Shown here: positions 10,901-61,315 of the stretch, in pieces | Layout: each line of letters begins with the position of its first letter | Position numbering within the stretch: position 1 is the first letter of the stretch | Source: Strigamia acuminata | Lineage: Eukaryota; Arthropoda; Chilopoda; Geophilomorpha; Linotaeniidae | Reading direction: 5' to 3' | Assembly: GCA_949358305.1 (NCBI GenBank) | Contig: OX442314.1 | Span: 7,929,060 to 7,993,059 of the forward strand | Length of the DNA: 64,000 nt | Made by a program: the position numbers and the translations under genes | Notes under the pieces: model-generated | The model's database searches: none | Seen by the model: the letters and a program-made list of their open reading frames with translations, nothing else | Told to the model about the DNA's origin: nothing

Positions 10901-13900
10901 TTCTTTGGTTTTAATCCGGAAATGTTATCGGATGGAAAACATTCAAACTGCGTACTATGCTGCGAAAAAGACTTCACCAAATGTTTTCTTAAGGCAGGGT
11001 GACTAGGGCTGAAATTGCTGGGATTCTTATTAGCACAGAGAAACAAAGCATTTGCAATTGCAAATAACCCACAATCATGTGAATTTTTTTGCTTTGCACA
11101 ACTTTGTACCTGTACATTTAATTTCAATGAGTCATTACATAACCGAACCAAACTACTAACAACAGAAATGTTTTTATCATGTACATCACTCAGAAGTGAA
11201 TCGTACACGTTTATAACGATAGCACTTTCCCCAATTTTGCCGGAAACAACATTCCAATGGTTATTATTCACGTGGCAAATCTGAACGAAATAATCTGAAC
11301 ACGGACTGAATGTTGGTAAACGGCTAGCACCAAAACTTACTGATTGTAGTCCTTGAACAGAAGGGTAATCTCTTTTCATCATACCCATAGCTGCATCAAT
11401 AATACTACCGTCGAGAAAAGCAATGCCCCTTAAAATCGATAAATGCTTCATGTTTAGCGGAATCGAACATACTTCAACCCATTCTGTATTTTCTTCCGCA
11501 TCATCACTAAAAAATTTCAATTTCTTAGTTCGTAAGCATGGCTTGGATAAAACTCTCTTTTTGCCAATTACTGATGTCATGACACCTTTTGGACGGCCAC
11601 GAACACAAACCAATCTGGGAAAATGCGCGACAATTGCATCCTGATTATCAATTTTTTCACTTAACTCATCGCCCGTTATTTCACGTTTTTCATCACTGGA
11701 CTCCGTTATTTCACGTTTTTCATCACTGGACTCCGTTATTTCACGTTTTACCCCACTCGACTCCGTTATTTCACGTTTTACCCCACTCGACTCCGTTATT
11801 TCACGTTTTACCCCACTCGACTCCGTTATTTCACGTTTATCCTTACTCGACTCCGTTATTTCACGTTTATCATCACTCGATTCCTCTTCCATTGTTTCAA
11901 TCTGATCGTCAAAAATATTACAATTCGTTTCGTTCTCGTTAACATCGGCACAAGACTCCTTTACGTCTATTTCAGATGGAACGATCTCGACCAAAGTAAA
12001 CTTTTTCTTTTCGCACATAAACTCACCAAACTTTTCTAACATTTCAAATACTTCATGAAACTCTTTGGTTCCGCATGTCTTCAACGCCTCCGTAATCGTA
12101 TTCATAACTACTTGGACTTTCAAATATTTTTCACGCTCAGTTAAAGGATTTGTCAAATTAGTCGTCACTTTCCTGGATCCATCTTTTTTACATACAGAAG
12201 CTAGTTCAACCGAGTCATTATAATACTTACGTTGCCACCTCATTGGAATCAAACCAATATCAAAAATTTCCAACTCGCATTTCCGTCTAACTGCAAAAAT
12301 GTGGCAACACGGCAAATGACGCATACAGAAAAGTTTGCAAGTACAACTGATGTCTGTCGTTTCTGAAATTCGATGGTGCTCGATGGTTACACTAAATCTA
12401 CCGTTGTCCAAATTTACGATCTCCTTGCAATTTTCACTAGACACGATCTCGCTAACAATTATGTAAAAGGCAAATGAGGTTACGGCACTAGCTATGGAAT
12501 TAAAAAGCTGTAAAGGTAATGAGGAGTACAACTGTTCAACTTTCATTGCCTGATTAAAACAACTTAAACGCGCCTTATCGAATATGCCATCAAGAAGCAA
12601 CTTTAAGTTGTCATAAAAAATGTGCAGAGCAGAATAAGTGCGAATAATACATTTCAACTTACTGTTCATGGACTCGACTCTATTATTTGTTGTATCCCCC
12701 ATGTTATAAGTTGTAACTCGACTGTACATACACCAACTCTCACGAATTAAATACCAACGATTCATAAAACGAATAAATAGTTCATGCTTCGAAAACTTAC
12801 TTTCAAACTCGGAAAAGAATTGTTGAAATTTTTCAACATCGTGTGCGTATAGCATTTCTTGTAATAAACTTTGTGCATTATCCACATCATCACCCATAAC
12901 TTTACATTCTTTGGTTAAAGCTTTAAAGCTCTTTAGAACATGAAATAAGCAAAGATCGTGTTTAGCAGTCGGGAAGTATTTTCGAATCAATTCGATTTCG
13001 GTAAAATCTTTGTCAGTCATAAAACTCGACCAATCAATGTTGAGTGGACACAACAGATTGTTGGGGGAAATAGTCTGGCCAGTGAGGGCCGACTATTTCC
13101 CCCAACGTTGGGGGAAATAAGGTACATATTATTTCCCCCAACGTTGGGGGAAATAGACACCTCGTTTTTATTAAAGGCTTTTATTTAACTTGACTTGAAC
13201 GTTTGTGTGTGTGGTTCAACGTCCGGTCACGTGACCTGAAAAGTAACTTTTCAAACCGCAGCGCCACCTGGCGGAACCCGTGTCCTTTAATGGAGGCTAA
13301 AATGTTTGTCGCGAAACGAAAAATGCTGTTTTCTATGTCGAAATGACATTTGTAAATTTTGAAACCAGTCTCATTCGACTGGAAATCAATATTTGCACCT
13401 GCCTGTATCTTTTGTTTTTTAATATTATTTTGAAAAAGTACTTTGTTGAAGATCACGGCAATTACGAAACAATCTGCAATAGTAGCGCACTCTGGCGGCG
13501 ATTTGAACACCAATATAAAAGCCTTTTTCAAAAACTTGGTTTTTTATATTTACTTGTTTGTTAGAAAATCAAATGACTTTATCGTTATTTGCAGGTATTA
13601 TGCGTATGAAACGTCACTCGATACTACAAGTCTCGGTGAACCAAATGACCAAGTAGAATTTTTTTAAAAAATTAAAATGAATGCGTACGCATTTGATTCA
13701 ATTACGTAGGTACGCTGCGGGGGTCCCAGCGAAACGGATGAAGCGAAAGAAATGTAAGTAAACTTCACGTTATGAATTGTTTGAATTGTTAGAAAGTGCA
13801 AATTGAATCGAGACGGACGTTTGTTTGCAGGAGCTACATGAGAGTGAGCGTTCAGTTTTCGAGCAACATTTACACCCACCACGAAGAAGTGTTGGACTGC

Positions 13901-14206
13901 GACGTGAGTTTATTTGTGGTTTGGCTTAGTTTGGCATTTGAAATTGTTTTTTGGCTTCAGCTGACGCAATTTTTGGGATTTTTGGGTGGCAACATCAGTC
14001 TGTGGCTCGGCTTGTGCGTGTTGTCGTTGCTCGAAGTGGTTCAACTAGTTTGGGATATGATCCTGGTCGGCTGGAGAAATAAATGGAAGAAAAAGAAAGT
14101 TGCGCGTCACTACCCCGTCAACATTCAGCACGGTCATCGCATTTCCTACGCGTACCAGTACGGTAAATGTTCGACAGGCTCGACTCGCAAACGTGTTACC
14201 TATTAG
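7921..14206 (+). CDS. DEG/ENaC (pickpocket-type) channel, 13 exons, complete
   Basis: Subunit of an amiloride-sensitive-type cation channel in the plasma membrane. Exons, each bounded by GT-AG with matching phase: 7921-7990, 8059-8266, 8319-8493, 8567-8700, 9464-9570, 9635-9798, 9852-9983, 10049-10172, 10233-10299, 13595-13652, 13710-13753, 13831-13903 and 13961-14206. Together they give 1602 nt, 533 residues, normal for the family. Visible in order: a basic N-terminus, a TT-IGIRYI segment just before TM1 (WLLAYVACMTLSIYQ), LPWPSITFCSN (family FPAVTIC), YDGNCFTFN (family YGNCYTFN), a LILDF/IHSPG palm region, the cysteine thumb ending KCPFPC, and TM2 with GGNISLWLGLCVLSLLEVV. The glycine-x-serine filter is present (NIS/GLC region). 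The 60-nt intron 10173-10232 could be retained in frame. Introns 4 and 9 carry transposons. Confidence 0.88.
8707..9407. mobile_element. Non-autonomous DNA transposon in intron 4 of the channel gene
   Basis: The ends TGCTACGTTCACACTTAAAC at 8707 and its inverse at 9407 continue for about 30 bp of near-perfect inversion (to CCACTTTTGTA). Internal copies of TTTTCTACAACT make further inverted pairs. A 3-bp AGA flanks both sides (8704-8706, 9408-9410) but is too short to be sure. No transposase frame is present. Confidence 0.7.
10696..13053 (-). CDS. MULE-encoded protein: transposase part, SWIM, ULP1-like protease, PHD finger
   Basis: Uninterrupted 785 codons. Residues ~1-45 look like the second half of a MULE DDE domain (FMTDKDFTEIELIRKYFP, then C-LFHVLKSFK). 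A SWIM finger (CTC-x9-C-x-H) sits at ~236-255. Seven or so copies of a 10-residue unit EITESSGVKR (30-bp DNA repeat at 11675-11880) occupy ~390-460. A C48 ULP1/SENP-like peptidase follows with NNHWNVV (His ~598), VYDSL (Asp ~615) and SHDCGLFAIA (Cys ~658). A C4HC3 PHD finger (CFCRTKK...CNKCSEWFHRDC) ends the protein at ~728-780. The first half of the transposase is absent because the right terminus follows directly, so the element is probably internally deleted yet keeps an open frame. Confidence 0.82.
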   Translation of the reverse strand: MCPLNIDWSSFMTDKDFTEIELIRKYFPTAKHDLCLFHVLKSFKALTKECKVMGDDVDNAQSLLQEMLYAHDVEKFQQFFSEFESKFSKHELFIRFMNRWYLIRESWCMYSRVTTYNMGDTTNNRVESMNSKLKCIIRTYSALHIFYDNLKLLLDGIFDKARLSCFNQAMKVEQLYSSLPLQLFNSIASAVTSFAFYIIVSEIVSSENCKEIVNLDNGRFSVTIEHHRISETTDISCTCKLFCMRHLPCCHIFAVRRKCELEIFDIGLIPMRWQRKYYNDSVELASVCKKDGSRKVTTNLTNPLTEREKYLKVQVVMNTITEALKTCGTKEFHEVFEMLEKFGEFMCEKKKFTLVEIVPSEIDVKESCADVNENETNCNIFDDQIETMEEESSDDKREITESSKDKREITESSGVKREITESSGVKREITESSGVKREITESSDEKREITESSDEKREITGDELSEKIDNQDAIVAHFPRLVCVRGRPKGVMTSVIGKKRVLSKPCLRTKKLKFFSDDAEENTEWVEVCSIPLNMKHLSILRGIAFLDGSIIDAAMGMMKRDYPSVQGLQSVSFGASRLPTFSPCSDYFVQICHVNNNHWNVVSGKIGESAIVINVYDSLLSDVHDKNISVVSSLVRLCNDSLKLNVQVQSCAKQKNSHDCGLFAIANALFLCANKNPSNFSPSHPALRKHLVKSFSQHSTQFECFPSDNISGLKPKKKKCYDRVYCFCRTKKVRGMIRCNKCSEWFHRDCLLEYDYKDVNFLNDLNSVEDFTCYTCNPIPINIE
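11675..11880. repeat. 30-bp tandem repeat inside the MULE ORF
   Basis: About seven copies of a 30-bp unit beginning CTCCGTTATTTCACGTTTTA, in frame with the minus-strand ORF and encoding a charged 10-residue repeat. Confidence 0.9.
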
Positions 14207-21521: not shown

Positions 21522-24500
21522 TTAACGTCTCTTTTGGAACCAAATCAAAAACATTCTACTCTGATGCCAATTAAAAGTGTTTAAAATGCAACTATAGAAA
21601 GACAGTAATGACATGCCCAAACCTAATCCTACAATGCTACCGACATCGCTTAGCAGTTGAGATAGCGGATATTTCTGTTGCTCTTCCGTAGTCTCCAAGA
21701 AGTTACCAGAAAATCTAATAGTTATGTATGTGGTAGAATTCAATGCATATTTATTCCCATACACAGAAGTTGTGTAAAAACTAATATCGCAAGGCAGTCT
21801 ACACGTGCATTGTTTTTGACTAGAGTCGAAATTCTTAAAGTACATGAAATGTGCGGTAGTAATTTCCTTCGATGTGTTACAAACTGGCAAATTGGGTCTC
21901 TCCATATACGGCAATCTGAAACGCAACATAATGTGGTGATATTTACAAACTACTAGCCAGTAAAGCTTTACACATTACTAAGCCACAGGTGTGATGTGAA
22001 AAAAGTAAATACCTGCAGGTAACATTTTGAAATAAATTGTTTTGGATGCAAGCATTTTTACAGTTGAAATAAGCACTTTTGTTCTCTTCACATGGATTAT
22101 GCTTTGTATTTTTTTGTATGGTCTATTGGTGGGAAATCAAAGTTAGTATGTACGAGTAATAGTGATTTAGGATAAGCAAGTGTGTAATTTATTACCTTAA
22201 ATAGTCGAAGTGTTACAATATTCATCCATCCATAATTTAAAGCCAAAGGTGCCAAAATGTTAACCTTTAATTCCAGGTTATTTAGGAAAATCTGAATATT
22301 ATTATAATTTAATAAATGACAAAATAAACACGCTCGGGTTATAATACACTTAAGTAGTACTTGTAGGTGTATTCGTGTCTAACAGTGCTACCATGAACCA
22401 AGGATAACATGTGGACTGACCCAGTATGGGGGAGGAGGGAGCTGAGTGGTGTGGTGAGGGAAAGATGTGAAAGAGAGAGGTAGCGACCACTGACGAGACA
22501 AGACGTGTCCAAGGCCTGACGTGAGTAAGGGCAACCCTGCCCTGTGCTGACTCTGTTCTCCTCACCATTCACCACGGCGAAACTCAGTAGTATGGCGTGT
22601 CCCATACTGCAGCCTCCATGAGTGGCTGCGTGGGTCGTACTAGGTAAGTACGATATGAATGTTATGTTGAACCGACCACGTCACCCATGGGGTTCACACC
22701 GTGTGTGTGACGGGTTGGTTGCCGCTGCGGCTTGCCTTACTGGCACCCCAGCAATAGGTGACGGGGTTCTCCAACCCCTAGACAACGATATTAAAGGTCA
22801 ACAACCAGCAATATGGAGTCTCTTGTCATTATTACGTGAGTATGCGTCCCAAACCGGGGTAACCAGTCTCCGGGTTACCTTGGCTAAGACCATACCAGTC
22901 ACAGAGTTTGCGACAAAATTCTCAATAAATAATTATAAGGTTTATGTATCCTTGAGCTAGTGATACGCCCAATAAATGGGATGGGAGTTTGTCATATGTT
23001 TTTGTAAGCGGAGTCAAATTCATTATATGCTTGGAAAGGAGGTCCTACTAAGTACTAAGTGAACAAATGGTGTTGAACTACCTTTAGATGCTGGTCGCAA
23101 ACTTTTGAAGGGAATAAATTTTCTAATGAAATTAAAAGGTCAGCATCTAGGGTGATTGATTTTTCTGGAAAACATTGATAAATTTTAAAAATAATTTGAC
23201 AACTGTTCGATGTGCACAAGTTTAGATAATTTGTGCCAATTTTTAAATGTCTATTTTTTAAATTAGAATACTTGTGTATAAAAAATGATGGAACTATACT
23301 CTGACATACTATAAGAGTAGCCTTTCTTCCATTGGCCCAGCCTCATTACTCCTAACTGTAGACTGTGTCATACCACCAGGAAAAGTAGTTTTGTTTTTTT
23401 CTTAATTTTTTTGATTATTCTAATGATTAAAATGATGAAATTTTATTTGTATTTTATAAGAAAATGTTTTTTTTAATTGATGAAATAATGTTTTAGGTTG
23501 TTTGCATTTCATAATTTATTTTTTTTAGTTTATTAGTTGCTTTGTCAGGAAAGCAAACAATTTCCTAACAATAGGTAATCGATTGCAATGTCTGGACATC
23601 TAACGCAATTCTGGTGTTTTGGTCTATTTTTTTGTATCAGTACACCAGTAAAATAGCTCGGCCAATGAGAGAAAGGCCACTCTTATAGTACGCCAGATGA
23701 ATTTGATGTGAAATGGCTAAATTTTCAATATTGACACTTTCTTTATAAATTACCTGTGTTTATTTGTGAACAATTACCGAAAGCAAGTGGAATAAGATGC
23801 CTTGACACATTTAGCCCAGGCACATTCTGCAAAAAAATTTCATTTTGTGTTTATTGTTTTTCAGATTTTGTGCGTGCTAGTACTTGAATCGTGATTGTGC
23901 CATGGACATTGAGTGTTTCCCAGATTTCTTCCAGTGATAATTTGTTGCTGAAAAGTTGCCAAGGCGATATTTCATTGCAGTTTTTGTTGGTGTATTTGAG
24001 TGAGTGTGATCTGGCTGTGTCCATTTCGTCGTTTTGTTTCTGACCACAGACCGTGACAGACTGAAATTCGGTGTAGCGGCGTTTATCTATTCTAATGATT
24101 TTTGTTACCGGTTCATCAATGTAGTAGTTGATACGAATTTGCAAGCAATACAAAGTGAATCCTGTGATTACCAATATCATCACAAATTTAAACTTTCCTA
24201 ATATTCCATTTCCCATGGTTTGCTCTTCGTTCGCAGTGACTTTTTTCTTGCACAACTCATACACACAGCCAATCTTGTCGACGGAAGTTTTTTGATTAAT
24301 GTTTGTTGCAATGTAATATAAATACCAAATGATTTCGGGTAACGAGATCAACGATAGATCGAGAAATAGGCCCAGATTGCCTCCTAAATCCGACATTAGA
24401 GCAATAACGTCGTAGATGTATTGTTCTTCATACAAGCTAATTTTTTCATTAGTTATTGCTAAAGCTACGGATGCAGTTTTATCATCATCTGCTATGCCTA

Positions 24501-27500
24501 AATCAATGGTTGTTGAAAAGGTTATTTGTTCACAAGGACGTCGACATAGACAATTAGAAACAGGATCTGTGTAGTCAATCAAATCTGCTGCCACAAAAAA
24601 TTGTTGGAATGTATTTTTCGAACCGTTGCAAAGTGGTAAATCTGCTTTCGTAAAGGGAAATCTTGAAAAGATAATTTTAAATTATAATTTTTTAAATTGT
24701 ATGATAACATCAAAGCTGTGATTGAGAAGAGGCGCCCAGACCAAATTTACTGGAAGTGTGACCAATGGAACATGAAGTGTGGAGGCAGACTAACTACAAC
24801 TTCTTACACCACTGAACCGAGAACACTAATTGAACCTACCATGTACAACCATCTTCCTGAACCAACGCATGTTGAAGTTGTCAAACTTATACCGTACTGC
24901 CTCGTTTAAATTTTTTTTGGTCCGACTGCCAGGCGGTAATATGAAACCAGGCGGTTAAATGAGCCAGGCCTTTATCCAGAAAAATTGTTGAAAAAAAAAA
25001 CCCGGAAAACAAAGTAGTATAAAAATAATATTTTTTTGAAAGTAAATTGGAATTTTTATTATTTGTCGTACGAAAGCTTTTTTTTAATCGGAGCCATAAC
25101 TGTGCTAACACGGAAACAATGTGACAACCAAACAATGAAGGCAATTTATATACCGTACAAAACGTACCGTGTGCGTACGTTATGCAGACGTACGTTTACC
25201 CGGCGCCAATTTGAAACCCGGCGTCAATACGGGGCCGGCGTCAATAGAATTTTGGACGTACGTCTGCCCGGCGTTAAAACGGGCCCAGCGCCTAAGTGAA
25301 TCCAGGCGTTTGAATGAGGCAGTACGGTACACAAGCTTTGAAGATTTGAGCCGCTCAGACTAGTGAGAAACCATCACAACTAATTCAAGCAACCCTGACG
25401 GGCACCGGCAGGGAATTGCGAGATGAAAACGTTATATGGAGTAGGAATAAAGTAAACAACGCAGAAAAATAAAGAAATCGATGACTTGATAAATTAAAAA
25501 ATTAAAAAATCAGGTAAAAATTTGAATCATTAAATAATAATTAAATATTTCAAAGGTACGCTTTGTCGACGCCATTCTGTCGACGCCATTCTGTCGACGC
25601 TGTCTTGTCGACCAAGTCTTTTTGTCAAATTTAGCTGACGACAAGGCGACCTGGTCGTCAAGACGGCGTTTACAAAGTGAAATTCGACCATTACTCCCTG
25701 GAAAAAGATTTTTTTAAAAAAACTGATAAGGTTAGGTTTGCAGGGGTCAAGGGAGGCCGCCAGCTCCCCCCCCCCCTTGTTAAACATTCTTAGGAATACG
25801 AGCAAAAAAAACCTTTGACGTGACTCAGCCTAAAAACGGCGGCGATGAAATGAATGGCGACAAAATGAATTGACTTTCCTTGTCAACCTTGTGACTGGTA
25901 TGGTCTTATCCACGGCAGTCTGGGGATTGACTTCCATGGGAGGGACGCATACTTACGTAAATGATTGAGACAGGGACTCCGGATTGTTGGATTTTGGCCT
26001 TTAATCGTTTTCTAGGGGTCGGAGTCTCCCATCTACCCATGTGTGGCAGTGCTGTTAGGCACGCTACACCAGCCACATGAATTTTTTAAGTCACAAAAAA
26101 TTAAATTTGCAAAATTGTACCTTCAAAAGTAATTTTAATAAAATCAAATAAATTCAAGATTCAAAGGATGGTTTACACAGACTCGTCATTGAAATTTGAA
26201 CTGGAATTACTCAGAATACCTGAGATCAATTTAAGTTAAATGATCAATTTATTTAAAGAAAAGAAAGTCGAAACTTTGTTTTTATTAAAATTATTTTTGA
26301 TGGGTCTAGGCACGTATTCTTACTTGCATGTTAGATGCTTTTTAAATTCTTTCACTAAACAACTACGATAGCATTCACTGTATTCATCTTCACTGGAGCA
26401 TTCATTTATTGGCGAATTAAGAAATTTGAACTAAAAATTTAAAATAAAATACGGTTATGAATAGTAACTTTAATTTTATTGGCAAAATCTTACTTTCTTA
26501 TAATTTAAATAAATTTTTGATGTTTCACCAGGATATTGCATTCCTACCTGAAAGGGTTTTCCAAAATCATAGAATGTGAGGTAAAGCTAAGTTCAAAAAG
26601 GAAAAAAAAAAGAATACAAACCACAATTTTTTTTATTTAAATTACCCAATACGACCCTTTAGGACATAGGTAGTCGTAGGTTTTTTCCATTTTTACTGCT
26701 AGTTCTTGTCCAAGAAGTGAGTCACTTGTAGCTTTTGCTGCATAAATGAATTATTAAGGTGTATTGAAGTCGATGGTGCTATACTCTAACTCACTACAAG
26801 TTGTGCCTTTCTTCCATTGGGCGAGCCTAATTACTCCTAACTGTGTACTGCAGCAAACAATTTTAGAATTTTTTTTTCGACTACAATGTCTGTACATCAA
26901 GTGCAATTCTGGTGGTTTGGTCTATTTTTTTGTATCACTACACAAGTGAAATGGCTCGCCCAATGGGAGAAAGGCCCAACTTGTATTGAGTTAGAATATA
27001 AATGTTTTTATACTTACGAAACTGAAAAGTTGGGCACAATCCGCCATCCATGTTGGTTTGAGTCAAAACAACTGTCGTGTTTGAGTTGGAATATTCCTGC
27101 GCGAATTAAAGAGTTTAAATTACGATTTTTTCTTTAAATAAATAAAAATTCTTTTTATCTCTTTTTGCCTTGATTTTTACGCTCACTACTTCCTTCATCA
27201 AACTAGTTGCTTTCCAAAGTTCTTCTATGTGAAAACCGAGGGTTTTACGCATATTTTTTCATTACTTTTTATTACTTTTATTTGTATCGAGTTCATTTTC
27301 AGCATTTTGTAATTTGTAGTTTTGGTGTTTGTAATTTGCATTTATTTTCCCTTTAAACTTTACCTATTTACTGAGCAATAATCCCTACCTTCTCACCCTA
27401 AAACTTCACTTCTTCAACTTCCACTTGACCTTTCTTGGAATCAACTAATTGCGGTCAAATTATTTCCACTCTCCAATCAGAGAGCTCCACATACCCTTTT

Positions 27501-30500
27501 CCCCCTTTTTATTCTCTAGTCTGAAAATAAATCACCAGTGTTTTTTTATACAACTCAAGAGAAGGTCTCCTTTATTTTATTTCCTACATTTACCAAGGAC
27601 TTTAAGATAATTTACAAGTGTGATTTCACATTTTGGTGCCGAAACCCAGGAAACCTTCGAATCTACATCTACATCTACAGCTAGAATCATCTAAAACTAC
27701 CGAAAATGGTGAGAAATTACGATTTTAAGAAGAAGTCTTTTGCGGCGGCCATTACAGTCACGGAAACGCTAATCAACACGGCGACCACCGCGCTGACCGG
27801 CAACGCCGCCATCTTGAAGGACACTTTAGAAATATGGATCGACCAATTGGATTCAAAACAAAATCGTGCAGCAAAAGCGTTCGAAATAGCTTTAGAAAGC
27901 TCAAAAACGGACGCAGATGTTAGCTCACTCACCGAGGAAATGGACGCTTTGGACGATCGAGTGCTGGTGTTGAAAGCGGCTATAAAAAGGTATTCAAATC
28001 AATTATACCCAATTGTTATTTTGCCGCCAGTTGTGAACAATGCACCCGCGACGAACGGCGCCGCCAAATTCAAAAGAAAGGCACTCGAGATTCCAAAATT
28101 TGATGGCAAACATCCGGAAATTTGGAGCAGCTTCTGGAAAACGTTTTGTTTGCAAGTGAACGACGACGCCGACCTTGACGATACGCATAAATTCCTTCAT
28201 CTGCGAGCGCATCTGACAGACGAGGCGTTGGAGGACATAAAAGGATTGGAAATCACCGACGCAAATTTCCTGATTGCAACAGAACGGCTAAAGAAAAAAT
28301 ATGGCGATCCGGTAGTATTAGAGAACAGATATTTAAACAATTTACTTTGCTTGCCACAAGTGCGTGACGAGAGTGACAATGAAGGACTGCAGCGTTTACA
28401 TCGTCATGTTGAAATCAACGTAAAAAACTTGGACAATGTGGGGGTGAAATTAATTGAAATTCAAAAAACCTTATTTCCAGTGTTAGCATCGACGCTCCCC
28501 CGCACCCTAATTCGGGAATACGACCGAGAGAACGATGGAGATCGATCCGTTCCGAGACTAATGGCATGGCTGCAGAATTTCATAGCCAAAGAGGCGAAGT
28601 ATGACATGATGCGGAAGAAATCAGACGTCCCACCAACCAAACCTCAACCTCAACAAACCAAAAATCCAAATAAAGAGGAGAAAAGGAAATGGGATCGAAA
28701 AGACAAGAAACACCATCCAAGTTCCGCATCAACAATGTCCGTAATAATTGATAAATGTCAGTTTTGCAGCTCAAAGGAACACATCCGTAGATTGTGCCCC
28801 CTCACCGCAGATCAAAGAAGGGAGAAAATAAAATCCAAAGGAATTTGCATGCGCTGCCTGGGCAAAGTGGCGCACAAGACGGAGGAATGTCGCACAAAAA
28901 TGAAGTGTTTCAAATGCGATGGACCACACCACACGCAAGTTTGCAACACCCCAAAGAATGCAAACAGCAAAGAAGCCACCACCAAGGAGGTCCACAGCAA
29001 CGCCGTGGTTAAAACTAGCCAGGAACAGTTCGAATTTTTGATGGTTGTCATGGCAAGATTGAGTGGCGACAAACTCCACACATCGAGCATCTGTTACATC
29101 GACGGCGGAGCCCAAAGAACATTTATCCGATCGGACGTGGCCAGAAAACTCAAACTAAAGAAGTTAGGTACCGAAAAAATTAACCTTTCTGTTTTTGGCA
29201 AAGATCCACAGTCCGTGACGTACAACCGAGTCCAGCTAACGATTCAACCAGCAAATGGAGCGAGTCCAGCCATCTCAATCGATGCCATAGAAATTCCTCA
29301 AGTCACAACAACTCCAACTGAAGTTCCCGATAAACAATTGGATGCAGAACTGAAAAAACGAGGGATTCAAGTACAATGCAGGCAAGCATCTCTTCACTCA
29401 AATGAAGTTGACATTTTGATAGGAGTGGACCACTACTGGAAATTAATGACGGGACAGACGGAATATATCGAAGACAACTTAATTGCTGTGAAAACCAAAT
29501 TAGGATGGACGTTACACGGACGAACCACTCACGGCAAGCAAGTGATCGCTTCATCAACCCGCATAAACAAAATTAGCATTGTCCACTCATCTGACGAAAT
29601 TCTACGCAAATTCTGGGAACTTGAAGCCATCGGGGTGCAACACGAGTCGCTTACATCAGTGGAAGACGCGGAAATTTTGGCGAAATTCGAAAAATCGATC
29701 AAATGGAATGGAAAAAACTATTCAGTCGAATTGCCATGGACTGTCAACCCAAATGAATTACAGGACAATTACCAAATTGCCGAACAAAGATTTTTAAACC
29801 TGCTTAGATGTTTCAGAAAGCAACCGAATTTATTTCTGGAATACAAAAAGGTGATTAGCGATCAATTGGCGCAAGGAATCGTAGAAGAAATACCACCAGA
29901 TGCCAGCGAGGGACCAGTTTACTACATGCCCCATCGACCAGTAATTAAAGATGAGAGGCTGACAACAAAACTTCGGATTGTTTTCGACGCCTCGTCGCAC
30001 AAAAAGGGACAACTGTCCCTAAATGACTGCTTGTCAAAAGGAACAAACCTCTTGCCATCTTTGATCTTCATTTTATTGAATTTTCGTTCCAGAAAGATAG
30101 CAATAATGTCGGACATCGTGAAGGCATTCCACATGATTGAAATTTGCATTTATTTTCCCTTTAAACTTTACCTATTTACTGAGCAATAATCCCTACCTTC
30201 TCACCCTAAAACTTCACTTCTTCAACTTCCACTTGACCTTTCTTGGAATCAACTAATTGCGGTCAAATTATTTCCACTCTCCAATCAGAGAGCTCCACAT
30301 ACCCTTTTCCCCCTTTTTATTCTCTAGTCTGAAAATAAATCACCAGTGTTTTTTTATACAACTCAAGAGAAGGTCTCCTTTATTTTATTTCCTACATTTA
30401 CACTTTTCAAACCAAGGACTTTAAGATAATTTACAAGTGTGATTTCACATTTTATATTATAAGTTGGGATTTCCATAAGAGCGTGAAACTTCTTAGAGCA

Positions 30501-30878
30501 TTTGTCGGCATCAGCTTTGACTTTTCCGTAAGTTTTATTCCTAAGTATGTCCATTTCTTTCGTATTTCTATTGCAGATCATCAAGCTTGGTAAAGCGACA
30601 TCTTCCGATCCACTCGTTACATCAACAACCGTTGGATAACTAAAGTAATGCATTATCCTGTTGCAGGTCTGATAAGTGAGCAAGCACGTGCAAAATGAGA
30701 ATAAAAGTAGCCAAAAGGTGTGATGCTTCGTCCAATGTCTTCTACTGCTTACGAAATCATCCAAACCAATTATATTACATCGAAGTTTGTTTTCATCATT
30801 TTTCATCAATTGGTTAATTGCCCGACGTAGTTCTCTCAATCTTAGCCCATTTCTTTTCACCGAATAATTATTCTGCAT
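21522..30878 (-). CDS. Tandem (two-module) DEG/ENaC channel gene, interrupted by BEL
   Basis: Eleven coding exons, minus strand. Module 1: exon 1 = 30878-30455 plus 27227-27187 (split by the BEL insertion), then 27096-27018, 26737-26646, 26547-26494 and 26430-26324. Bridging exon: 24661-23884. Module 2: 23826-23755, 23164-23082, 22264-22196, 22122-22013, 21915-21522. Exon 1 encodes a cytoplasmic N-terminus, TM1 (FWLLLFSFCTCLLTYQ), SYPTVVDV and LPSLMICNRN. Module 1 continues through GGLCPTFQF and paired-cysteine exons to LPLCNGS, CLCRRPC and TM2 (GGNLGLFLDLSLISLPEIIW). The same exon then runs on to TM1 of module 2 (FKFVMILVITGFTLYC) and TEFQSVTVCG. Module 2 repeats the same exon pattern and ends with CTCRLPC and TM2 LSDVGSIVGLGLGMSLLS. 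Phases agree at all junctions except exon 7/8 (one base short). About 767 codons in total. Confidence 0.78.
22265..23081. other. Intron between module-2 exons, with unidentified insertion
   Basis: The GC-richer block 22340-22960 differs in composition from its surroundings and has no recognised protein. It may be a solo LTR or other insertion, but no defined ends were found. Confidence 0.4.
23299..23696. mobile_element. MITE copy A (TATACTCT... family)
   Basis: Inverted ends of ~45 bp (ACTATAAGAGT-GCCTTTCTTCCATTGGC and its inverse near 23640-23690) are shared with copies at 26.8 kb and 49.6-51.0 kb. It sits in an intron of the tandem channel gene. This copy holds the intact sequence TTTGTATTTTATAAGAAAATG near 23450-23470, equivalent to the insertion site used by another element in copy C. 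Confidence 0.75.
23884..24661 (-). CDS. Bridging exon: end of DEG/ENaC module 1 fused to start of module 2
   Basis: 778 nt with one open frame of 259 codons. From its start come LPLCNGS, the thumb cysteines NCLCRRPCEQ, a palm strand, pre-TM2 and TM2 of module 1. A linker of about 45 residues (ATNINQKTSVDKIG...NEEQTMGNGILG) follows, then TM1 of module 2, YYIDEPVTKIIRI, FQSVTVCGQK and a finger segment LSLEEIWETLN. The exon 1 counterpart in module 1 reads YNIEELWKATS. Both channel ends are cytosolic in this family, so a cytosolic linker is topologically consistent. An internal methionine in the linker (TMGNG) could in principle start a separate module-2 protein. Confidence 0.85.
24697..24889 (+). 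pseudogene. FLYWCH zinc-finger fragment
   Basis: The translation contains QIYWKC, KCGGRLTTTSYTT and MYNHLPEPTHVEVVKL, the W-x-C, C and H-x-H-like blocks of a FLYWCH domain as found in MULE transposons and some host factors. It has no start codon context or continuation and abuts the MITE at 24892. It lies inside an intron of the channel gene on the opposite strand. Confidence 0.55.
24892..25327. mobile_element. MITE with CCGTACTGCCTC ends, TA duplication
   Basis: The left end CCGTACTGCCTCGTTTAAA at 24892 and the inverse CCGTACTGCCTCATTCAAA at 25327 are flanked by TA on both sides (24890-24891, 25328-25329), as for Tc1/mariner-type elements. The internal sequence is rich in CCAGGCG and CCCGGCG motifs in inverted orientation. 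Confidence 0.75.
25330..26323. other. Intronic/unassigned sequence
   Basis: Contains a GTCGACGCCATTCT triplication at 25567-25610 and otherwise no recognised coding sequence. Most of it would be intron 5 of the tandem channel gene. Confidence 0.4.
26782..26999. mobile_element. MITE copy B, internally deleted
   Basis: The ends TATACTCTAACTCACTACAAG and its inverse TATATTCTAACTCAATACAAG match copies A and C. The central ~170 bp found in copy A is missing. It lies between exons 27018 and 26737 of the tandem channel gene. Confidence 0.75.
27228..30449 (+). mobile_element. BEL/Pao LTR retrotransposon, deleted
   Basis: The 5' LTR is 27228-27630 (TGTGAAAACC...GATTTCACA). It is followed by a primer site beginning TGGTGCCGAAACCC at 27634. 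The 3' LTR is present only as 30141-30449; its 5' part was lost in a deletion that joins reverse-transcriptase sequence directly to LTR. Relative to the 5' LTR the 3' copy has one 11-bp insertion. Flanks TTCTA (27223-27227) and TTTTA (30450-30454) fit a 5-bp target duplication with one mutation. Removing the element and one flank restores the open frame of a DEG/ENaC exon. Confidence 0.88.
27706..30189 (+). CDS. BEL/Pao Gag-protease-partial RT polyprotein (truncated)
   Basis: 827 codons. Order seen: Gag with the KFDGKHPEIWSSFWKTF region typical of BEL/Pao Gag (~125-350), three cysteine knuckles (CQFCSS, CMRCLG, CFKCDGPHHTQVC; ~350-420), then an aspartic protease segment CYIDGGAQRTFI (~465) in which the usual D-S/T-G reads DGG. 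A BEL RT start follows (YYMPHRPVIK, LRIVFDAS, LNDCLSKGTNLLPSL; ~735-800). The frame then leaves RT before its catalytic YxDD block and ends in LTR sequence. RNase H and integrase are gone, so the element could move only with help. Confidence 0.85.
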   Translation: MVRNYDFKKKSFAAAITVTETLINTATTALTGNAAILKDTLEIWIDQLDSKQNRAAKAFEIALESSKTDADVSSLTEEMDALDDRVLVLKAAIKRYSNQLYPIVILPPVVNNAPATNGAAKFKRKALEIPKFDGKHPEIWSSFWKTFCLQVNDDADLDDTHKFLHLRAHLTDEALEDIKGLEITDANFLIATERLKKKYGDPVVLENRYLNNLLCLPQVRDESDNEGLQRLHRHVEINVKNLDNVGVKLIEIQKTLFPVLASTLPRTLIREYDRENDGDRSVPRLMAWLQNFIAKEAKYDMMRKKSDVPPTKPQPQQTKNPNKEEKRKWDRKDKKHHPSSASTMSVIIDKCQFCSSKEHIRRLCPLTADQRREKIKSKGICMRCLGKVAHKTEECRTKMKCFKCDGPHHTQVCNTPKNANSKEATTKEVHSNAVVKTSQEQFEFLMVVMARLSGDKLHTSSICYIDGGAQRTFIRSDVARKLKLKKLGTEKINLSVFGKDPQSVTYNRVQLTIQPANGASPAISIDAIEIPQVTTTPTEVPDKQLDAELKKRGIQVQCRQASLHSNEVDILIGVDHYWKLMTGQTEYIEDNLIAVKTKLGWTLHGRTTHGKQVIASSTRINKISIVHSSDEILRKFWELEAIGVQHESLTSVEDAEILAKFEKSIKWNGKNYSVELPWTVNPNELQDNYQIAEQRFLNLLRCFRKQPNLFLEYKKVISDQLAQGIVEEIPPDASEGPVYYMPHRPVIKDERLTTKLRIVFDASSHKKGQLSLNDCLSKGTNLLPSLIFILLNFRSRKIAIMSDIVKAFHMIEICIYFPFKLYLFTEQ

Positions 30879-30939
30879 TGTATCGTTTACTTCTTCGTAC
30901 AGAATTCAAACTATGGTTTCTAAGTCCCTATAAGGCCAA

Positions 30940-33594: not shown

Positions 33595-35205
33595 TTAATC
33601 TTGACCTTTTTCGGTCTCCGTGGCGGGCTTTTGCCTATCCTTCGAAGAGGAACCTTTGCCACGTTTCTTGGCGGGAAGAGGTTCTTCCGGTTGCCGATCT
33701 ATGAAGAAGGCAGTGGTCGCAACAACTTCCGTGGCGATGGGAGTCTCGGGTGCTTTATCCCCTGCTTCAGGCTGATCAGTCGATCCGTCTTCTTCATTGA
33801 TCATCTTTTTGAGATCTTCGTAGATGTCAATCACCGGGGGCAAAACCAAAATCCAGCCTTCACATATTTGGTTTTTCAGTTCATCTGCGATTTTTCCCAC
33901 GAGCAGATTCCAAAGATGCTCCAAAATGTTGAAGCCCTCAACGCGACGTGGATTCAAGATCATTTGCATGATCCTGGTCACATATCCTACTGTTATTTGA
34001 TCGGGTAGACCCGTAACCAATTGACGAGAAATGATAATTGCAAGTCGAGCCACGATGGGGTAGTAGTATTCAACCTCCCAAACAAATAACTGTCCTATCT
34101 TGGTGTTCGGAAGAACTTGGTAAGGTTCAATCAAGAACTCGTTCGAAATTCCGTGCTCCACAACGTTTGGCATGGGGACTAGTGCGGCTTCGTCCGTTTG
34201 AGTCGCATTATCTACACAGACAATACTTGGCATTTTTTCCAAACCCATTTGAAGGCCAAGGGGCGTTCTTCGCGAATTCATAAATTCAGGATCCTCGTAT
34301 ACAGCTTTGCCATCGTTGGATAATAAAGCTTTACAAAGGTGGCAGGTTGCCCATTTTCGGGGTTCTGGATCGAACAACCCTTTAATCACGAACGAAACAA
34401 ACTTGGGGTTCCAGGGTTGGATTTTTAATCGTCGTTTCGTTCCGAGACAATTCCCGCACGATGCCAAATGGCATCCTGTCCCGGAGCCGGACATCCAGCC
34501 TACCCCGAAACAGAAAGGGCACGGTATTTCGCCCTTCGCGAGCTCCAAATTGTCGTGTGGAATTCCCATTTCCAGGTCGCGATCGCAGGCGGCTTTTCGA
34601 CGTAGTGTCTTTTCTTGCTTACTAGCTGCTCTTTGTTGAGCAGTCATCGGCTGCAGTTTGGGGGCTCTGGTGGACACAACCGTACGTTTCCCTCTAGCCG
34701 TATTATATCTAGGAGTATACACTACTTCGCGCGAAGTCGTGGGTGGCGGCGAGTCGTAATGAACGTACTCTCGCTGTTTGCGTTTGTTGTCTTGATGGCG
34801 GTTTCCCTCGGGATTTCGATTCGCCTCTAATTTGACAATCTCGTCCAGACTTCTCTCATGAGAGGTCGACGAATCTTCCATTCGACTCGTACTTGGTTTA
34901 TGGATCGGCTGTAACGGATGGCTTTTGGAGAAACTATCCTTTTTTGGTATAATGAAGGTTTCTTGTGTAACCTCCATCGCTGTTTTGGGTACAGCCGTTT
35001 TTGGGCGAATTTCCTTTGGGAGAGCATCTGGGTTGTTTCGGGCCCAGGTTAATATGTCCCATCCTTTTTGGTCGAGCACAATAGGAGTGTTTGGTGCTCC
35101 CGGGATCGTTACGATGGTCGGGTTGACCGTGGGCGTATTGTCTTCCTCTGAAGAGCTCGATTGAATCACAATTCGCCGCTTTTTAATTGGTATCTTCTTG
35201 ACCAT
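33595..35205 (-). CDS. Gypsy third ORF, 536 aa, unknown function, DnaJ-like Cys motif
   Basis: Lies downstream of pol in the position where errantiviruses carry env, but I see no signal peptide, no hydrophobic fusion peptide and no membrane anchor. The N-terminal half is basic and low complexity (KKRRIVIQSSSSEE; many S/T/P/R/K). Residues ~230-265 hold CPFCFGVGW ... CGNCLGTKRR, resembling the CxxCxGxG repeats of the DnaJ zinc domain, and CHLCKALL follows at ~297. The C-terminal ~200 residues look globular and partly helical, ending in a K/E/T-rich tail. It is probably nuclear or cytosolic and nucleic-acid or chaperone related, by inference only. The frame is intact in a young element, suggesting it is used. 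Confidence 0.8.
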   Translation of the reverse strand: MVKKIPIKKRRIVIQSSSSEEDNTPTVNPTIVTIPGAPNTPIVLDQKGWDILTWARNNPDALPKEIRPKTAVPKTAMEVTQETFIIPKKDSFSKSHPLQPIHKPSTSRMEDSSTSHERSLDEIVKLEANRNPEGNRHQDNKRKQREYVHYDSPPPTTSREVVYTPRYNTARGKRTVVSTRAPKLQPMTAQQRAASKQEKTLRRKAACDRDLEMGIPHDNLELAKGEIPCPFCFGVGWMSGSGTGCHLASCGNCLGTKRRLKIQPWNPKFVSFVIKGLFDPEPRKWATCHLCKALLSNDGKAVYEDPEFMNSRRTPLGLQMGLEKMPSIVCVDNATQTDEAALVPMPNVVEHGISNEFLIEPYQVLPNTKIGQLFVWEVEYYYPIVARLAIIISRQLVTGLPDQITVGYVTRIMQMILNPRRVEGFNILEHLWNLLVGKIADELKNQICEGWILVLPPVIDIYEDLKKMINEEDGSTDQPEAGDKAPETPIATEVVATTAFFIDRQPEEPLPAKKRGKGSSSKDRQKPATETEKGQD

Positions 35206-35795
35206 AATTCTACAAATATAAAAAACGTCTTAGTTTTATTTGCAATACTTTGGTATGCGCGCGCCCTCTATTGAGAAAACGCGTAACTGAATTTACGAAT
35301 TTTATAATTATAATTCGTTATAATTTTATATTTTCGTGTATTGATAATTTTATCGAACTTACGAAAATGTCCTGCTTCCTTTAGAAGCGTATCTTGTGGA
35401 ATTATGAGTGTAGTCGCCTCGACGACAACTTGGAGTTTAGAGCACGTGGCTTTCAAATCCTCCGCCGCTAATAAACGAATTCCGCTGGTTCGTATTTCTT
35501 CGAATATTCAAAGAAATTTCATGATATATATATATAACTTTATATGCATAATCATAATACCTGTATTCGTTGATTAACAGCTAACAATGTCAACGCGTTT
35601 GACCGTGATTTTTGTTGAATTCGACGAAGTTCTTCTTCTCTCACGTGTGTGTTAGAAGACTGAATATAGAACGAATCTTTTACTCTCCACCCGGGGTCAT
35701 AATTTATCAGGTGACTTCGCGAATTTTGATTTGAATATTCAATAACTGATTTAAATCAATATCTTTTAGAATATTCTTTTTATATTTAGAGTCGT

Positions 35796-38700
35796 TTAAC
35801 GACGTTCTTGAACCATCTGCACAAAATCCGTAGTATATTTCGGATTTGGCTTCGAAGTTCTTTTCGGTCTCGAGATTATCTCCGGAAGGTCAGCTGTTCG
35901 CTTCCGTTTATTTGAGTTATTACTTCGTGGGTCGATAATCTCGTCTCCATTTTCATTTGAGGTAGGAATTATTCTTTCTTCTGGTTCAAGACTTTCTTGA
36001 GGAAGTTCTTCCATATCTTTTTCAAGATTTTCACGAGAGGTTTCTTCCATATCTTGATTATCTAATTCTTGTGAATTAGATTTGTTAAATTCGGAATTTG
36101 CCGACATCCAATCAGGGTTTGGATGATCTTCCAGTTTTCCTTTTTTCTGACCCAGGGTCCATGTCTCAATCGGGTATGAAGGGATATACGGGGTGAGATC
36201 ATCCGTATTTATTGATGGTTCAATTGAATCATCTAATAATTTTCGTAAGGTGTATGCACCTCCTGTTAGTACGGCCGTGATTTCCCACGGTCCGTCTCGT
36301 TTTTCCGCAAATCCTTTAGTAATACCTTTGTCTTGATTGGAAAGAATATGTGTATTCTTCCAGACTAAATCACCTACTTCATATTTGCAAATATGAAATT
36401 TATTGCGGTGAATTCTGTCGTGTTTCTCGTAATTTAGTTGGATTCTACGGTGCATTTCTTGGTGTGCTCTCCGTAAAATCCCGAGTAAATTAAACACGAA
36501 TTCCTCAGGGTTATTTTTATCGAATTTATTCGCGTGTTGAATAATTCGCGGGTCGAAAGGTAGTGTTACTATTCTTCCCGTATTTAATAAAAATGGCGTC
36601 GATCCGGTTGCTTCGGATTTTGCCGTTCTGGATGCAAATGCAAATTCATTCAGAAAACGTGGCCAGTGAGAGTGCACATCAGAATAAATCGCAAGCATTA
36701 TTTTGATATCTCTGTTTGCCCGTTCTGTGGGGTTGGCCTGAGCATGATAAGGACTTATATGAGTCATTTTAATGTTATGCCTTTTGCAGAAACCCTCATA
36801 GATGGTTGATGCGAACTGTTTTCCATTATCACTGATAATTTTCCTGGGGTATCCCCATCTATGTACGATATCACCTAACTTTGTTATAATTGCTTCACTT
36901 GAAGCTTTGCTTAATGGGGCTAATTCTACCCATTTAGTACATTGATCGATTCCTACTAAAATATATTTATGTTGGTATTGACCAGCGGGTTTGGGACCCA
37001 TGAAGTCTAAACAAAGAACTTCCCATGGCTGTGCCATATTGTGAGGAGTATAACTCGCTCTGTTTTTGCGGTGTTGACTAGGTTTGTATTGTTGGCAATG
37101 AACACAACTACGAACATAATTGCACGTGTCTTTGCTCATTTTAGGCCAATAATAGATGAGTTTCGCTCGTTCGAGCGTTTTACTCATCCCCGCGTGTCCA
37201 CTTAACGGATGTCCGTGGCATGCGAACAACACTCGTCGTACTAACGAAGGTGGAATCACCGCTTTAAATCCGTTGCCGGAATCATTTAATTCTTCTTCAA
37301 ATGTTGGTTTGAAGAAGATTAACATTTCAGAGTCATTACTATTCTCATCTTCATTATCATGATTTTCTTTGAAATCTAGTTGGTAGCCTTTGATGTCTTT
37401 CATCCATCGCTTAGTTTTCTTATTCCTTCTTTGCTCAACTTCATCTAATTTTAGATGAGTTATTATTTTTCTACATTCATAGTCTTTGAGCTGAGCTTCG
37501 ATGATTTCTGCTCTGGTAGGAGGAACTATACTTAGTACTTCGGTTAAAGCACTAAATAAAGTTTCTGGTTCTACATGACCTTTCTCCCCCTTTTCCAAAG
37601 AATTATTTAATTTTTTGGAATAATCAAACTTTACTGACACGTTTGTTAAGAACTGACAGGGTTTTGGTTCTTCTCTACGAGTAACTTCTTTATTTCCGTC
37701 CCATTCGGGCCAGAATTGAGTTATTTCTGTGGGTTCGATGTAATCATCCTTCGGAATGTCTTCAATACTCAAAGGAGCTCTTGAAAATGCGTCTGCGACT
37801 TGATTTTGAGTACCACGACGATACTTAATCTTAAAGGCGCCACATTGCAGTTTAATTGCCCATCGGCCAAAACGACCAGAAGGTTCTGGCGTTCCCATTA
37901 GCCATTTTAAGGCTTCTGCATCTGACTCCAGGGTGAAAGACGTGTATTCTATGTAGGGGCGGAAACGTTCTACAGCCCATACTACCGCTAGACACTCTAG
38001 TTCGGGAGTAGTGTAACGTTGCTCGGCTCCTCGAAGTACGCGACTAGCGTAAGCTACGGGTCTTGGAGTTTTAATCCATTTGTCCTTGTTTTTATCAAGA
38101 AAGTCCACATCTTGGCATAACACCGCTCCTAATCCTGAATGTGAAGCATCTGTTAGAATCACAAAGGGTTCGAGCATGTTAGGCATTAACAAAACTTGAG
38201 TTTCGTCGCATAAAATGTCTTTAATTCTTTCGAAAGCGTCTATTTGCTCTTGTCCCCAGACAAAGGTTGCTTTCTCGTGCATTATGCTAGTCAGTGGAGT
38301 AGCAATTTCACCGTGGTTAGGAATAAACTTCCTAAAGAAATTTGCCAACCCGTGAAACCTTTGTACATCTTTCGATGTTTTTGGGGTGGGAAATTTTCGT
38401 ACTGACGCGATTTTATCAGGATCCGGGGCCAATCCATTCGGAGTGATTAAGTGTCCCAGAAATTTTAGCGTAGTTCTGCCGAACTTAGACTTTTCTTTAT
38501 TTACGGACAAGTTTGCTTTGTCTAGTCGTTCTAATACATCTTTAATGTGACCGAGATGTTGATCCCAAGTCTGAGAAAAGATAATTACATCGTCTAAATA
38601 GACTAATGCGTGTTTATATAACGCGTCACCCATAACTTGTTCCATTAGGGCTTGAAATGTACAAGGCGCGTTACATAACCCAAATGGCATACGTACAAAT

Positions 38701-42266: not shown

Positions 42267-43052
42267 AATAAAAGGTTCTAAATTCTTTATTTCTAAAGAA
42301 CGATAACACACTTTATAAAAATACACTTCAAAATAACAATACACTTCGATAAGGTTAAGCTTAAACTCCACGTGGTGGTTAAACGTGTTAAACTATCGAT
42401 AAATTTTAAACAATCAAATGAATCCTACTACAAGTAAACTAGCGTCGGGTGAGAAGGCGCTTTAAACTATTTGTTAAAATAATAGGTGAAATACACTTAA
42501 CTTTAGCTGGTTTACGGCGTGGAAAATTCGAATCGGGACTGAACGGGACGGCGTGGTCAAGATGGCTACTGGAGCACGTGTCTGCAGGTCTGGTCTGGAT
42601 ACGAATGGTCGTCTGTAGTCTGGATCCGCGTGGCATCGAGGATCGATAATCCTTTAATCCCTCGACACTTTATTGGTGGAAAGTTATTTTATCCAATGAT
42701 AAAATGGAAACTAATCCTTTATTTTAGTAGTTTTCTACTACGTCCGCACTTTGGCCTGGTCAATCTCGTTACTGATTGGATATTTCTTACGAAAATATTC
42801 AACTAACATTGAAATTTTACCAAGCTTTTTTCGTGAAAATTAAAATTAATTTTACTTCGATTTTAAGTGTTTTTTCAACACAACGAAACTTTCCCTTTAA
42901 TGTTAGAGTTCTCACGAACCCCAACGTTCTTAAAGAGAATTCCCTACTTCGCAAAAGCAGAGACATCTAAAAATGTTTTGAAATGTTATAATCTTTATTT
43001 ATCTCAATTTTCACTTTTATTTAAATTCGATAAATTTAAAACTGTGCAACCT

Positions 43053-60910: not shown

Positions 60911-61315
60911 TCATTTTTTATCACCTCTTTTGAACCAAATAAAAAACTTTCTACGCAGATACCAATTGCTAGTGTTTAAAATCCAAACGTAGAGAGAAAT
61001 CAATGACATTCCCAAACCTAATCCCACAATGCTGCCTACATCGCTTAACAATTGCGATAGTTGATATGACTGTTTCTCTTCTGAAGTCATTATAAAATTG
61101 TCACTAAAAGCAACGATTATCAGTGTGCTAGACCCATAAACTCTTTTATTCCCCACAATAATGGTTTCGTAATAAATCTTTTCGCAAGGTTGTTTACATT
61201 TGCATTGTTTTTGATTCGAGTTATAATTATTTAAGTACGTTAAATGAGCGGTAGTGATTTCTTTTGTTGAGTTACAGGCTGGCAAATTCGGTCTCCCTAT
61301 ATAAGGTAATCTGAA
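60911..61315 (-). CDS. DEG/ENaC channel, last exon (partial gene)
   Basis: The minus-strand exon starts after an acceptor (GTTTCAG at ~61316) and encodes LPYIGRPNLPACNSTKE, the thumb/palm CKCKQPCEKIYYE, a palm strand, and TM2 with QLLSDVGSIVGLGLGMSLIS, then a short basic tail and stop. It is a close paralogue of the last exon of the tandem gene (21915-21522). The TM2 pore helix is almost identical (LSQLLSDVGSIVGLGLGMSL). Upstream exons are not in this window: a degenerate LTR starts 60 bp upstream, so either the gene continues past 64 kb or it is truncated. Confidence 0.8.
   Translation of the reverse strand, partial: FRLPYIGRPNLPACNSTKEITTAHLTYLNNYNSNQKQCKCKQPCEKIYYETIIVGNKRVYGSSTLIIVAFSDNFIMTSEEKQSYQLSQLLSDVGSIVGLGLGMSLISLYVWILNTSNWYLRRKFFIWFKRGDKK

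What the first reader, a model, noticed from the sequence alone, without database searches (positions are those of the whole stretch)
21522..30878. A natural tandem DEG/ENaC: two channel modules encoded as one gene
Seen directly: a single uninterrupted exon (24661-23884) encodes the thumb cysteines and TM2 of one DEG/ENaC module, a ~45-residue linker, and TM1 plus the SVTVC segment of a second module. Exons before and after supply the rest of both modules with matching order and phase: both have the exon pair ending ...C then LPxCN. Known: DEG/ENaC subunits are single two-TM polypeptides that assemble as trimers with cytosolic termini. Inference: this family contains a four-TM concatenated subunit, which would constrain trimer stoichiometry. 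I know of no described natural example.
Basis: partly seen in the sequence, partly recalled or inferred. Interest (0 to 1): 0.92.

Follow-up and report, generated by a model that had tools for sequence, protein, structure and literature searches.

The report
Two-in-one DEG/ENaC channel gene family
A genome that looks like a centipede's appears to hold about two hundred genes that each fuse two sodium-channel subunits into one four-pass protein, although channels of this type are known as threesomes of single subunits.

Summary
Exon 24661-23884 (minus strand) reads open through TM2 of one DEG/ENaC module, a 38-residue linker and TM1 of a second module; introns from A3 on are GT-AG and in phase. 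The same genome yields 216 non-overlapping exons of this kind from two queries, a lower bound. In the window's own clade most lie in A1-bridge-B6 order (70 of 88). An intact paralogue encodes one 797-residue, four-TM frame. The linker is under purifying selection and is 38 residues in 28 of 30 paralogues. All four Strigamia maritima proteins found cross the same fusion. Divergent clades (25-27% identity) share the architecture, and 25 of 25 sampled B modules group together (99/92), so the fusion is probably old. Expression, function and stoichiometry are untested. Nine paper searches listed no natural tandem DEG/ENaC. Best reading: an expanded, perhaps sensory family of two-module DEG/ENaC subunits.

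The parts
30450..30878 (-). Module A first coding exon (A1), 5' part: start codon, cytosolic N-terminus, TM1, LPSLMIC segment
   Evidence: Pfam ASC 3.7e-13; 55% identity to Strigamia T1JEH2 over 136 residues; 74% to the paralogue at C1:7778844
27228..30449 (+). LTR retrotransposon (BEL/Pao-like by my reading; gag/protease frame 27685-30189, truncated in pol and in one LTR) inserted in exon A1, antisense to the gene
   Evidence: Pfam DUF1759 and DUF1758; LTRs identical over about 280 aligned bp except one 11-bp indel; flanks TTCTA / TTTTA
27181..27227 (-). Module A exon A1, 3' part beyond the retrotransposon (IEELWKATSLMKEVVS)
   Evidence: continuous exon in paralogue L063 (IPTYNVDELWKATNLT); same run in Strigamia P0001
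27018..27096 (-). Module A exon A3
   Evidence: GT-AG, phase fits; counterpart of B2
26646..26737 (-). Module A exon A4
   Evidence: GT-AG, phase fits; counterpart of B3
26494..26586 (-). Module A exon A5
   Evidence: GT-AG, phase fits; counterpart of B4
26324..26430 (-). Module A exon A6 (cysteine-rich, ends ...LTC)
   Evidence: GT-AG, phase fits; counterpart of B5
23884..24661 (-). Bridging exon: module A LPLCN to TM2, linker, module B TM1 and SVTVC segment
   Evidence: 50% identity to Strigamia T1JEH2 with no gap in the linker; 148 genome matches
24313..24411 (-). TM2 region of module A, pore motif GLFLDLS (Asp in place of Gly)
24199..24312 (-). 38-residue linker between the modules, read as cytosolic
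   Evidence: length 38 in 28 of 30 paralogues, omega 0.52 (95% 0.30-0.79)
24136..24198 (-). TM1 of module B
   Evidence: hydropathy peak at the same place in paralogue L063; omega 0.41
23754..23826 (-). Module B exon B2
23082..23164 (-). Module B exon B3
22196..22291 (-). Module B exon B4
22013..22122 (-). Module B exon B5 (cysteine-rich, ends ...VTC)
21522..21915 (-). Module B last exon B6: LPVCN, thumb cysteines, TM2, stop
   Evidence: Pfam ASC 2.1e-12
60911..61310 (-). Last exon (B6) that follows, in strand order, the A1 and bridge of the next tandem gene, both outside the window
   Evidence: 60% identity to B6; A1 C1:8005498 and bridge C1:8003452 on the same strand

Best explanation
The locus is one member of a large, old family of tandem DEG/ENaC genes. 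Each gene encodes one four-pass polypeptide: module A (TM1 - ectodomain - TM2), a short cytosolic linker, then module B (TM1 - ectodomain - TM2). The family probably arose by one fusion of two DEG/ENaC genes and then expanded, largely in arrays. Shown by sequence: the fused frame, its conservation, a lower bound on family size. Inferred: the two modules are made as one protein and sit next to each other in a trimeric pore, with the third place filled by a module from another chain (a second tandem chain or a single-module subunit); I give this stoichiometry about 0.45. Also inferred: a sensory, perhaps chemosensory role, from the expansion alone. The window's own copy carries a young retrotransposon in its first coding exon and is probably a null or polymorphic allele.
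For: Open bridging exon with an ASC match and exons matching the other ASC parts; spliced model in phase; 216 non-overlapping bridging exons from two queries; 84 of 88 clade-1 bridges without a stop in the match; 70 of 88 bridges with A1 next upstream and B6 next downstream on the same strand, and 0 direct A1-to-B6 neighbours among 246 pairs; intact 797-aa paralogue with 11 exons, GT-AG introns and four TM peaks; linker omega 0.52, 95% 0.30-0.79, length 38 in 28 of 30; the linker Met in only 9 of 30, so no conserved restart; four of four Strigamia proteins cross the fusion; divergent clades at 25-27% identity are co-linear; 25 of 25 sampled B modules one group, 99/92. Engineered ASIC1a chains of two, three and four subunits gave currents (passages of PMC4529235).
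Against: No transcript or protein evidence. The window copy is interrupted in A1 and has Asp at its module A filter Gly. A modules were one group in the quick tree (SH-aLRT 81) but needed two changes in the careful tree, and the single rows three; the bootstrap had not settled. Four of 25 B rows (L069, L082, L083, L085) have no bridge located next upstream. Some of the 216 carry a stop, one is half of a split exon, and some near-identical ones (for example on small contigs C32 and C50) may be assembly duplicates. AlphaFold2 of the bridging exon failed (mean pLDDT 35.5). The sensory role rests on expansion alone.
Confidence: 0.87

Rival explanations
1. The bridging exon serves two separate proteins: some transcripts end after TM2 of A, others start before TM1 of B, so the modules are never joined.
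For: No transcript data exclude it; the window copy has a Met in the linker.
Against: The linker stays open, of nearly fixed length and under purifying selection; its Met is in only 9 of 30 paralogues; Strigamia models join the modules; clades at 25-27% identity keep the same frame.
Confidence: 0.06
2. Joined chains form two linked trimers: three tandem chains give one A3 pore and one B3 pore, tied by three linkers.
For: All 25 sampled B modules form one group apart from A and single rows, as expected if A and B each meet their own kind; no two bridges follow each other in clade 1, so two modules per gene is the rule there.
Against: No structural evidence; a 38-residue linker also suits neighbours within one trimer; engineered ASIC chains work.
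Confidence: 0.25
3. Two tandem chains form a four-module channel.
For: One study reports ASIC1a mainly as tetramers by cross-linking (passages of PMC4529235); an even module number removes the mismatch.
Against: DEG/ENaC channels solved so far are trimers (established knowledge); the centipede PDPNaC1 assembles as a homotrimer (abstract and passages of PMC12714832).
Confidence: 0.1
4. The window copy is a pseudogene and tells nothing about function by itself (compatible with the family reading).
For: LTR element in coding exon A1 with nearly identical LTRs; Asp at the filter Gly.
Against: The other exons are open and in phase; pairwise omega with four relatives is 0.23-0.43, so constraint lasted until recently; the insertion may be polymorphic or spliced out.
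Confidence: 0.65

Closest known systems
DEG/ENaC (Pfam ASC, PF00858) channels: ASICs, ENaC, pickpockets, degenerins
   Same: Each module has TM1, a post-TM1 Cys segment, a cysteine-rich ectodomain, and TM2 with a G-X-S type motif
   Different: Known subunits have one module and two TMs (established knowledge); here two modules and four TMs in one chain
Centipede BRTNaC1 and PDPNaC1 (Scolopendra)
   Same: Best PDB sequence matches of module A; channels of the same family
   Different: Two-TM subunits; PDPNaC1 is a homotrimer; both lie outside the B group, and outside the A group in the quick tree
Strigamia maritima T1JEH2, T1JEG4, T1JGJ4, T1IYF0
   Same: Uncharacterized proteins that cross the same TM2-linker-TM1 fusion; 45-53% identity over 31-83% of the query
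   Different: Gene models are partial; named only 'Uncharacterized protein' in the listing
Engineered ASIC concatemers
   Same: Covalently joined DEG/ENaC subunits that give currents
   Different: Laboratory constructs, not natural genes
Two-pore-domain K+ channels (recalled, no call)
   Same: Natural fusion of two channel modules in one chain
   Different: They pair into a four-fold pore; here two modules meet a three-fold pore

Membership tests
DEG/ENaC (PF00858) | Profile match above the gathering score | tested here: met
   52.6, 47.3 and 49.8 bits against 23.6 for three window frames; 139.4 bits for the 797-aa paralogue
DEG/ENaC (PF00858) | Two TM helices per module | tested here: met
   Four hydropathy peaks in L063, two per module
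DEG/ENaC (PF00858) | G/S-X-S selectivity motif in TM2 | tested here: inconclusive
   Module B: G-X-S in 25 of 25 rows. Module A of 29 other paralogues: G-X-S in 21, G-X-A in 8. Window copy: GMS in B, but DLS in A
DEG/ENaC (PF00858) | His-Gly motif in the N-terminus (recalled) | tested here: not met
   No His before the Gly in the window A1 or in the 10 A1 exons fetched, e.g. LIGLDD, IIGLED; before TM1 of module B many have NG, none HG
DEG/ENaC (PF00858) | One module per polypeptide | tested here: not met
   Two modules in one frame
DEG/ENaC (PF00858) | Trimeric sodium-selective channel activity | not testable with these tools
   Needs expression and recording

The most novel reading that the evidence does not exclude
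Centipedes use hundreds of natural four-TM DEG/ENaC concatemers as a main environmental receptor class, and these assemble in a way not seen in single-module DEG/ENaC channels (a fixed A-B pair with an exchangeable third module, or two linked pores).
Probability: 0.35. Interest if true: 0.95.

Novelty: new variant of a known kind. Interest (0 to 1): 0.88.

Why it matters
DEG/ENaC channels are taken to be trimers of single two-pass subunits. A natural, apparently old and much multiplied family with two modules per chain makes it testable how a three-fold pore copes with two-module subunits. It offers natural counterparts to laboratory concatemers. It may also be an unexamined sensory receptor family: Strigamia lacks insect odorant receptors, and sodium transport is among the functions enriched in genes duplicated in its lineage (passages of PMC4244043). 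That paper has no hit for ENaC, degenerin, pickpocket or sodium channel in its main text.

Tried and rejected
Assembly artefact: rejected, because the same fusion recurs at over 200 places and in Strigamia. Restart inside the linker: unlikely, Met not conserved. Ribosome-skipping 2A motif: 0 of 30 bridging exons scanned. Three-module genes: no two bridges follow each other in clade 1; one fragment-bridge neighbour is, by my reading, a single exon split by an insertion. Structure prediction of the bridging exon with five rows failed (mean pLDDT 35.5), so no fold search was made. Whether the genome is Strigamia maritima itself is not settled: the whole-genome search with P0003 did not complete; in the loci held, the best matches of the four Strigamia proteins are 56-62% identical, which suggests another centipede but covers only part of the family. 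Spread outside centipedes is untested: three protein searches returned four Strigamia proteins and two weak hits covering 5-7% of the query. They did not return ordinary DEG/ENaC channels in general, so they cannot show absence elsewhere.

Rows left out: for I copied by hand 88 bridge rows, 15 bridge fragments, 101 B6 and 100 A1 rows. The other 45 bridge rows (25-34% identity), 10 short fragments and the remaining low-identity rows were not used there. Each search scored 141-150 candidates (93), so counts are lower bounds. P0004 was dropped from the tree for its short overlap; the window bridge (L031) fell out because its TM2 did not fit my pattern. The 14 single rows are last exons with a stop after TM2, chosen from the 30 loci; I did not look upstream of them, so 'single' is assumed.

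Full report
Check of the observation. The stop-to-stop frame 24681..23851 on the minus strand is 276 aa. Its first half matches Pfam ASC positions 352-455 at 5.1e-14; the frames 30905..30363 and 21974..21522 match ASC positions 5-85 and 318-450. A spliced model from 27226 to 21522 has GT-AG introns from exon A3 on, continuous phase and one stop, at the end. Each module A exon from A3 on has a module B counterpart of the same phase: A3/B2, A4/B3, A5/B4, A6/B5. Translating the exon from its first base gives stops, because it starts with the last base of a codon.

The window copy is interrupted. An LTR element lies at 27228-30449, antisense to the gene, with a gag/protease frame (DUF1759, DUF1758) and a truncated pol. 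Its two LTRs are identical over about 280 aligned bp apart from an 11-bp indel, and the flanks TTCTA / TTTTA look like a 5-bp target duplication with one difference. Exon A1 is continuous at that place in the paralogue L063 (IPTYNVDELWKATNLT), and Strigamia has the same run, so the element sits in coding sequence. The module A pore motif reads DLS, where 29 of 29 other sampled paralogues have Gly first. The copy is probably a recent null or a polymorphic allele; pairwise omega with four relatives is still 0.23-0.43.

A family, not a gene. The window lies at C1:7929060-7993059 of a 237.5-Mb assembly. The bridging exon protein finds 148 matches there: 88 of at least 170 residues at 48-100% identity, 84 of them without a stop inside; 15 fragments; and 45 more at 25-34% identity that still cross the linker. 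A second query, from a C11 clade, gives 141 matches. The union of non-overlapping bridging exons is 216. This is a lower bound, since each search scores about 150 candidates, but a few carry a stop, one is half of a split exon, and near-identical ones may be assembly duplicates. Searches with the last and the first exon gave 101 and 100 rows of the window's clade (as copied). In strand order 70 of 88 bridges have A1 next upstream and B6 next downstream within 20 kb, 9 have A1 only, 8 B6 only, 1 neither; the median span of the 70 is 5.3 kb. Among 246 neighbouring exon pairs within 25 kb, A1 is followed directly by B6 in 0, and bridge by bridge in 0.

An intact example. L063 (C1:7778600-7782500) has 11 exons with GT-AG introns and one frame of 797 aa from Met to stop. 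It has four hydropathy peaks, at 54-72, 366-384, 438-456 and 761-779. Pfam ASC matches in three stretches, the best covering profile positions 26-449 in the second module. The two modules share 26% identity over 150 residues.

The linker is coding and constrained. In 30 paralogues it is 38 residues in 28, 39 in one and 35 in one; a Met at the window's linker position occurs in 9 of 30. Pooled omega over 429 of 435 pairs is 0.52 for the linker (95% column bootstrap 0.30-0.79), 0.15 for TM2, 0.41 for TM1 and 0.37-0.42 for the ectodomain parts. The pairs are not independent, so the intervals are rough. A 2A-like motif occurs in 0 of 30.

Age and spread. Protein searches at E 0.001 returned only Strigamia maritima proteins: P0001 with both modules, and P0002, P0003, P0004, each crossing the fusion. 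Identity of the bridging exon with P0001 is 50% over 268 residues, with no gap in the linker. The searches are not sensitive: other DEG/ENaC channels were not returned, so absence elsewhere is not shown. In the window's genome, clades on C6, C5, C3 and C11 are also tandem; four clades align co-linearly at 25-27% identity, with small exons missing from three rows. In a tree of 64 C-terminal halves, 25 of 25 B modules form one group (99 bootstrap / 92 SH-aLRT; the bootstrap had not settled). Four of those rows (L069, L082, L083, L085) are B by similarity only. The 23 A modules form one group in the quick tree (81) and need two changes in the careful one; the 16 single rows, with BRTNaC1 and PDPNaC1, need three and lie outside the B group. 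One old fusion is the simplest reading. The single rows are last exons that stop after TM2, taken as single-module without a look upstream.

How it may work. DEG/ENaC ends are cytosolic (established knowledge), and the linker is short and slightly basic (7 K/R to 4 D/E in L063), so it should be cytosolic. Engineered ASIC1a chains of two, three and four subunits gave currents (passages of PMC4529235), and ASIC2a-3 concatemers form functional trimers (abstract and section headings of PMC10329638). So linked modules can sit in one pore. I favour an A-B pair completed by a third module from another chain (about 0.45), then two linked trimers (0.25), then a four-module channel (0.1). A sensory role is inferred from the expansion; in Strigamia insect odorant receptors are absent and sodium transport is among the functions enriched in lineage-specific duplicates (passages of PMC4244043). 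The link of that statement to this family is my guess.

Novelty. Nine paper searches, several aimed at tandem, fused or concatenated DEG/ENaC and others at centipede channels, listed no natural tandem DEG/ENaC. I saw listings, and of five papers passages or abstract and headings. Subscription journals are mostly missing from that library. I file it as a new variant of a known kind: DEG/ENaC by homology, but breaking the one-module-per-chain rule.

Noticed in passing
window 8130-14206 (+): A separate DEG/ENaC gene on the plus strand, by my reading of the frames (TM1 near 8190, cysteine segment near 10060-10300, TM2 near 13960-14070); it looks single-module.
   Followed up: partly
window 10341-13170: A DNA element with weak MULE, Ulp1-protease and PHD matches (frame 10696-13092) and gggggaaataag-type ends lies inside that second DEG/ENaC gene.
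   Followed up: partly
window 35796-42392 (-): A 2198-aa uninterrupted gag-pol frame with RT, RNase H and integrase matches, suggesting a young LTR element.
   Followed up: partly
window 54489-57101 (-): An 870-aa frame that joins a Mutator-like transposase match with a YqaJ / viral-exonuclease match.
   Followed up: no
window 33595-35229 (-): A 544-aa open frame with no Pfam match at 0.01, near the gag-pol frame.
   Followed up: no
G000 C6 2.2-5.5, 11.2-11.4 and 13.2-13.7 Mb; C1 26.8-27.0 Mb; C4 1.9, 3.0 and 12.0 Mb; C9; C11 5.0 Mb: Further groups of divergent bridging exons, so the family total is probably above 216.
   Followed up: partly
25 B-module rows of the tree: The motif before the pore reads D-x-G-S/N in 23 rows (others DIAN and NIGS) instead of the D-x-G-G usual in A and single rows, a possible mark of a different pore role.
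   Followed up: no
P0001 residues 1-160 and 173-380: The Strigamia model repeats the module A start, either a model error or a further duplication.
   Followed up: no
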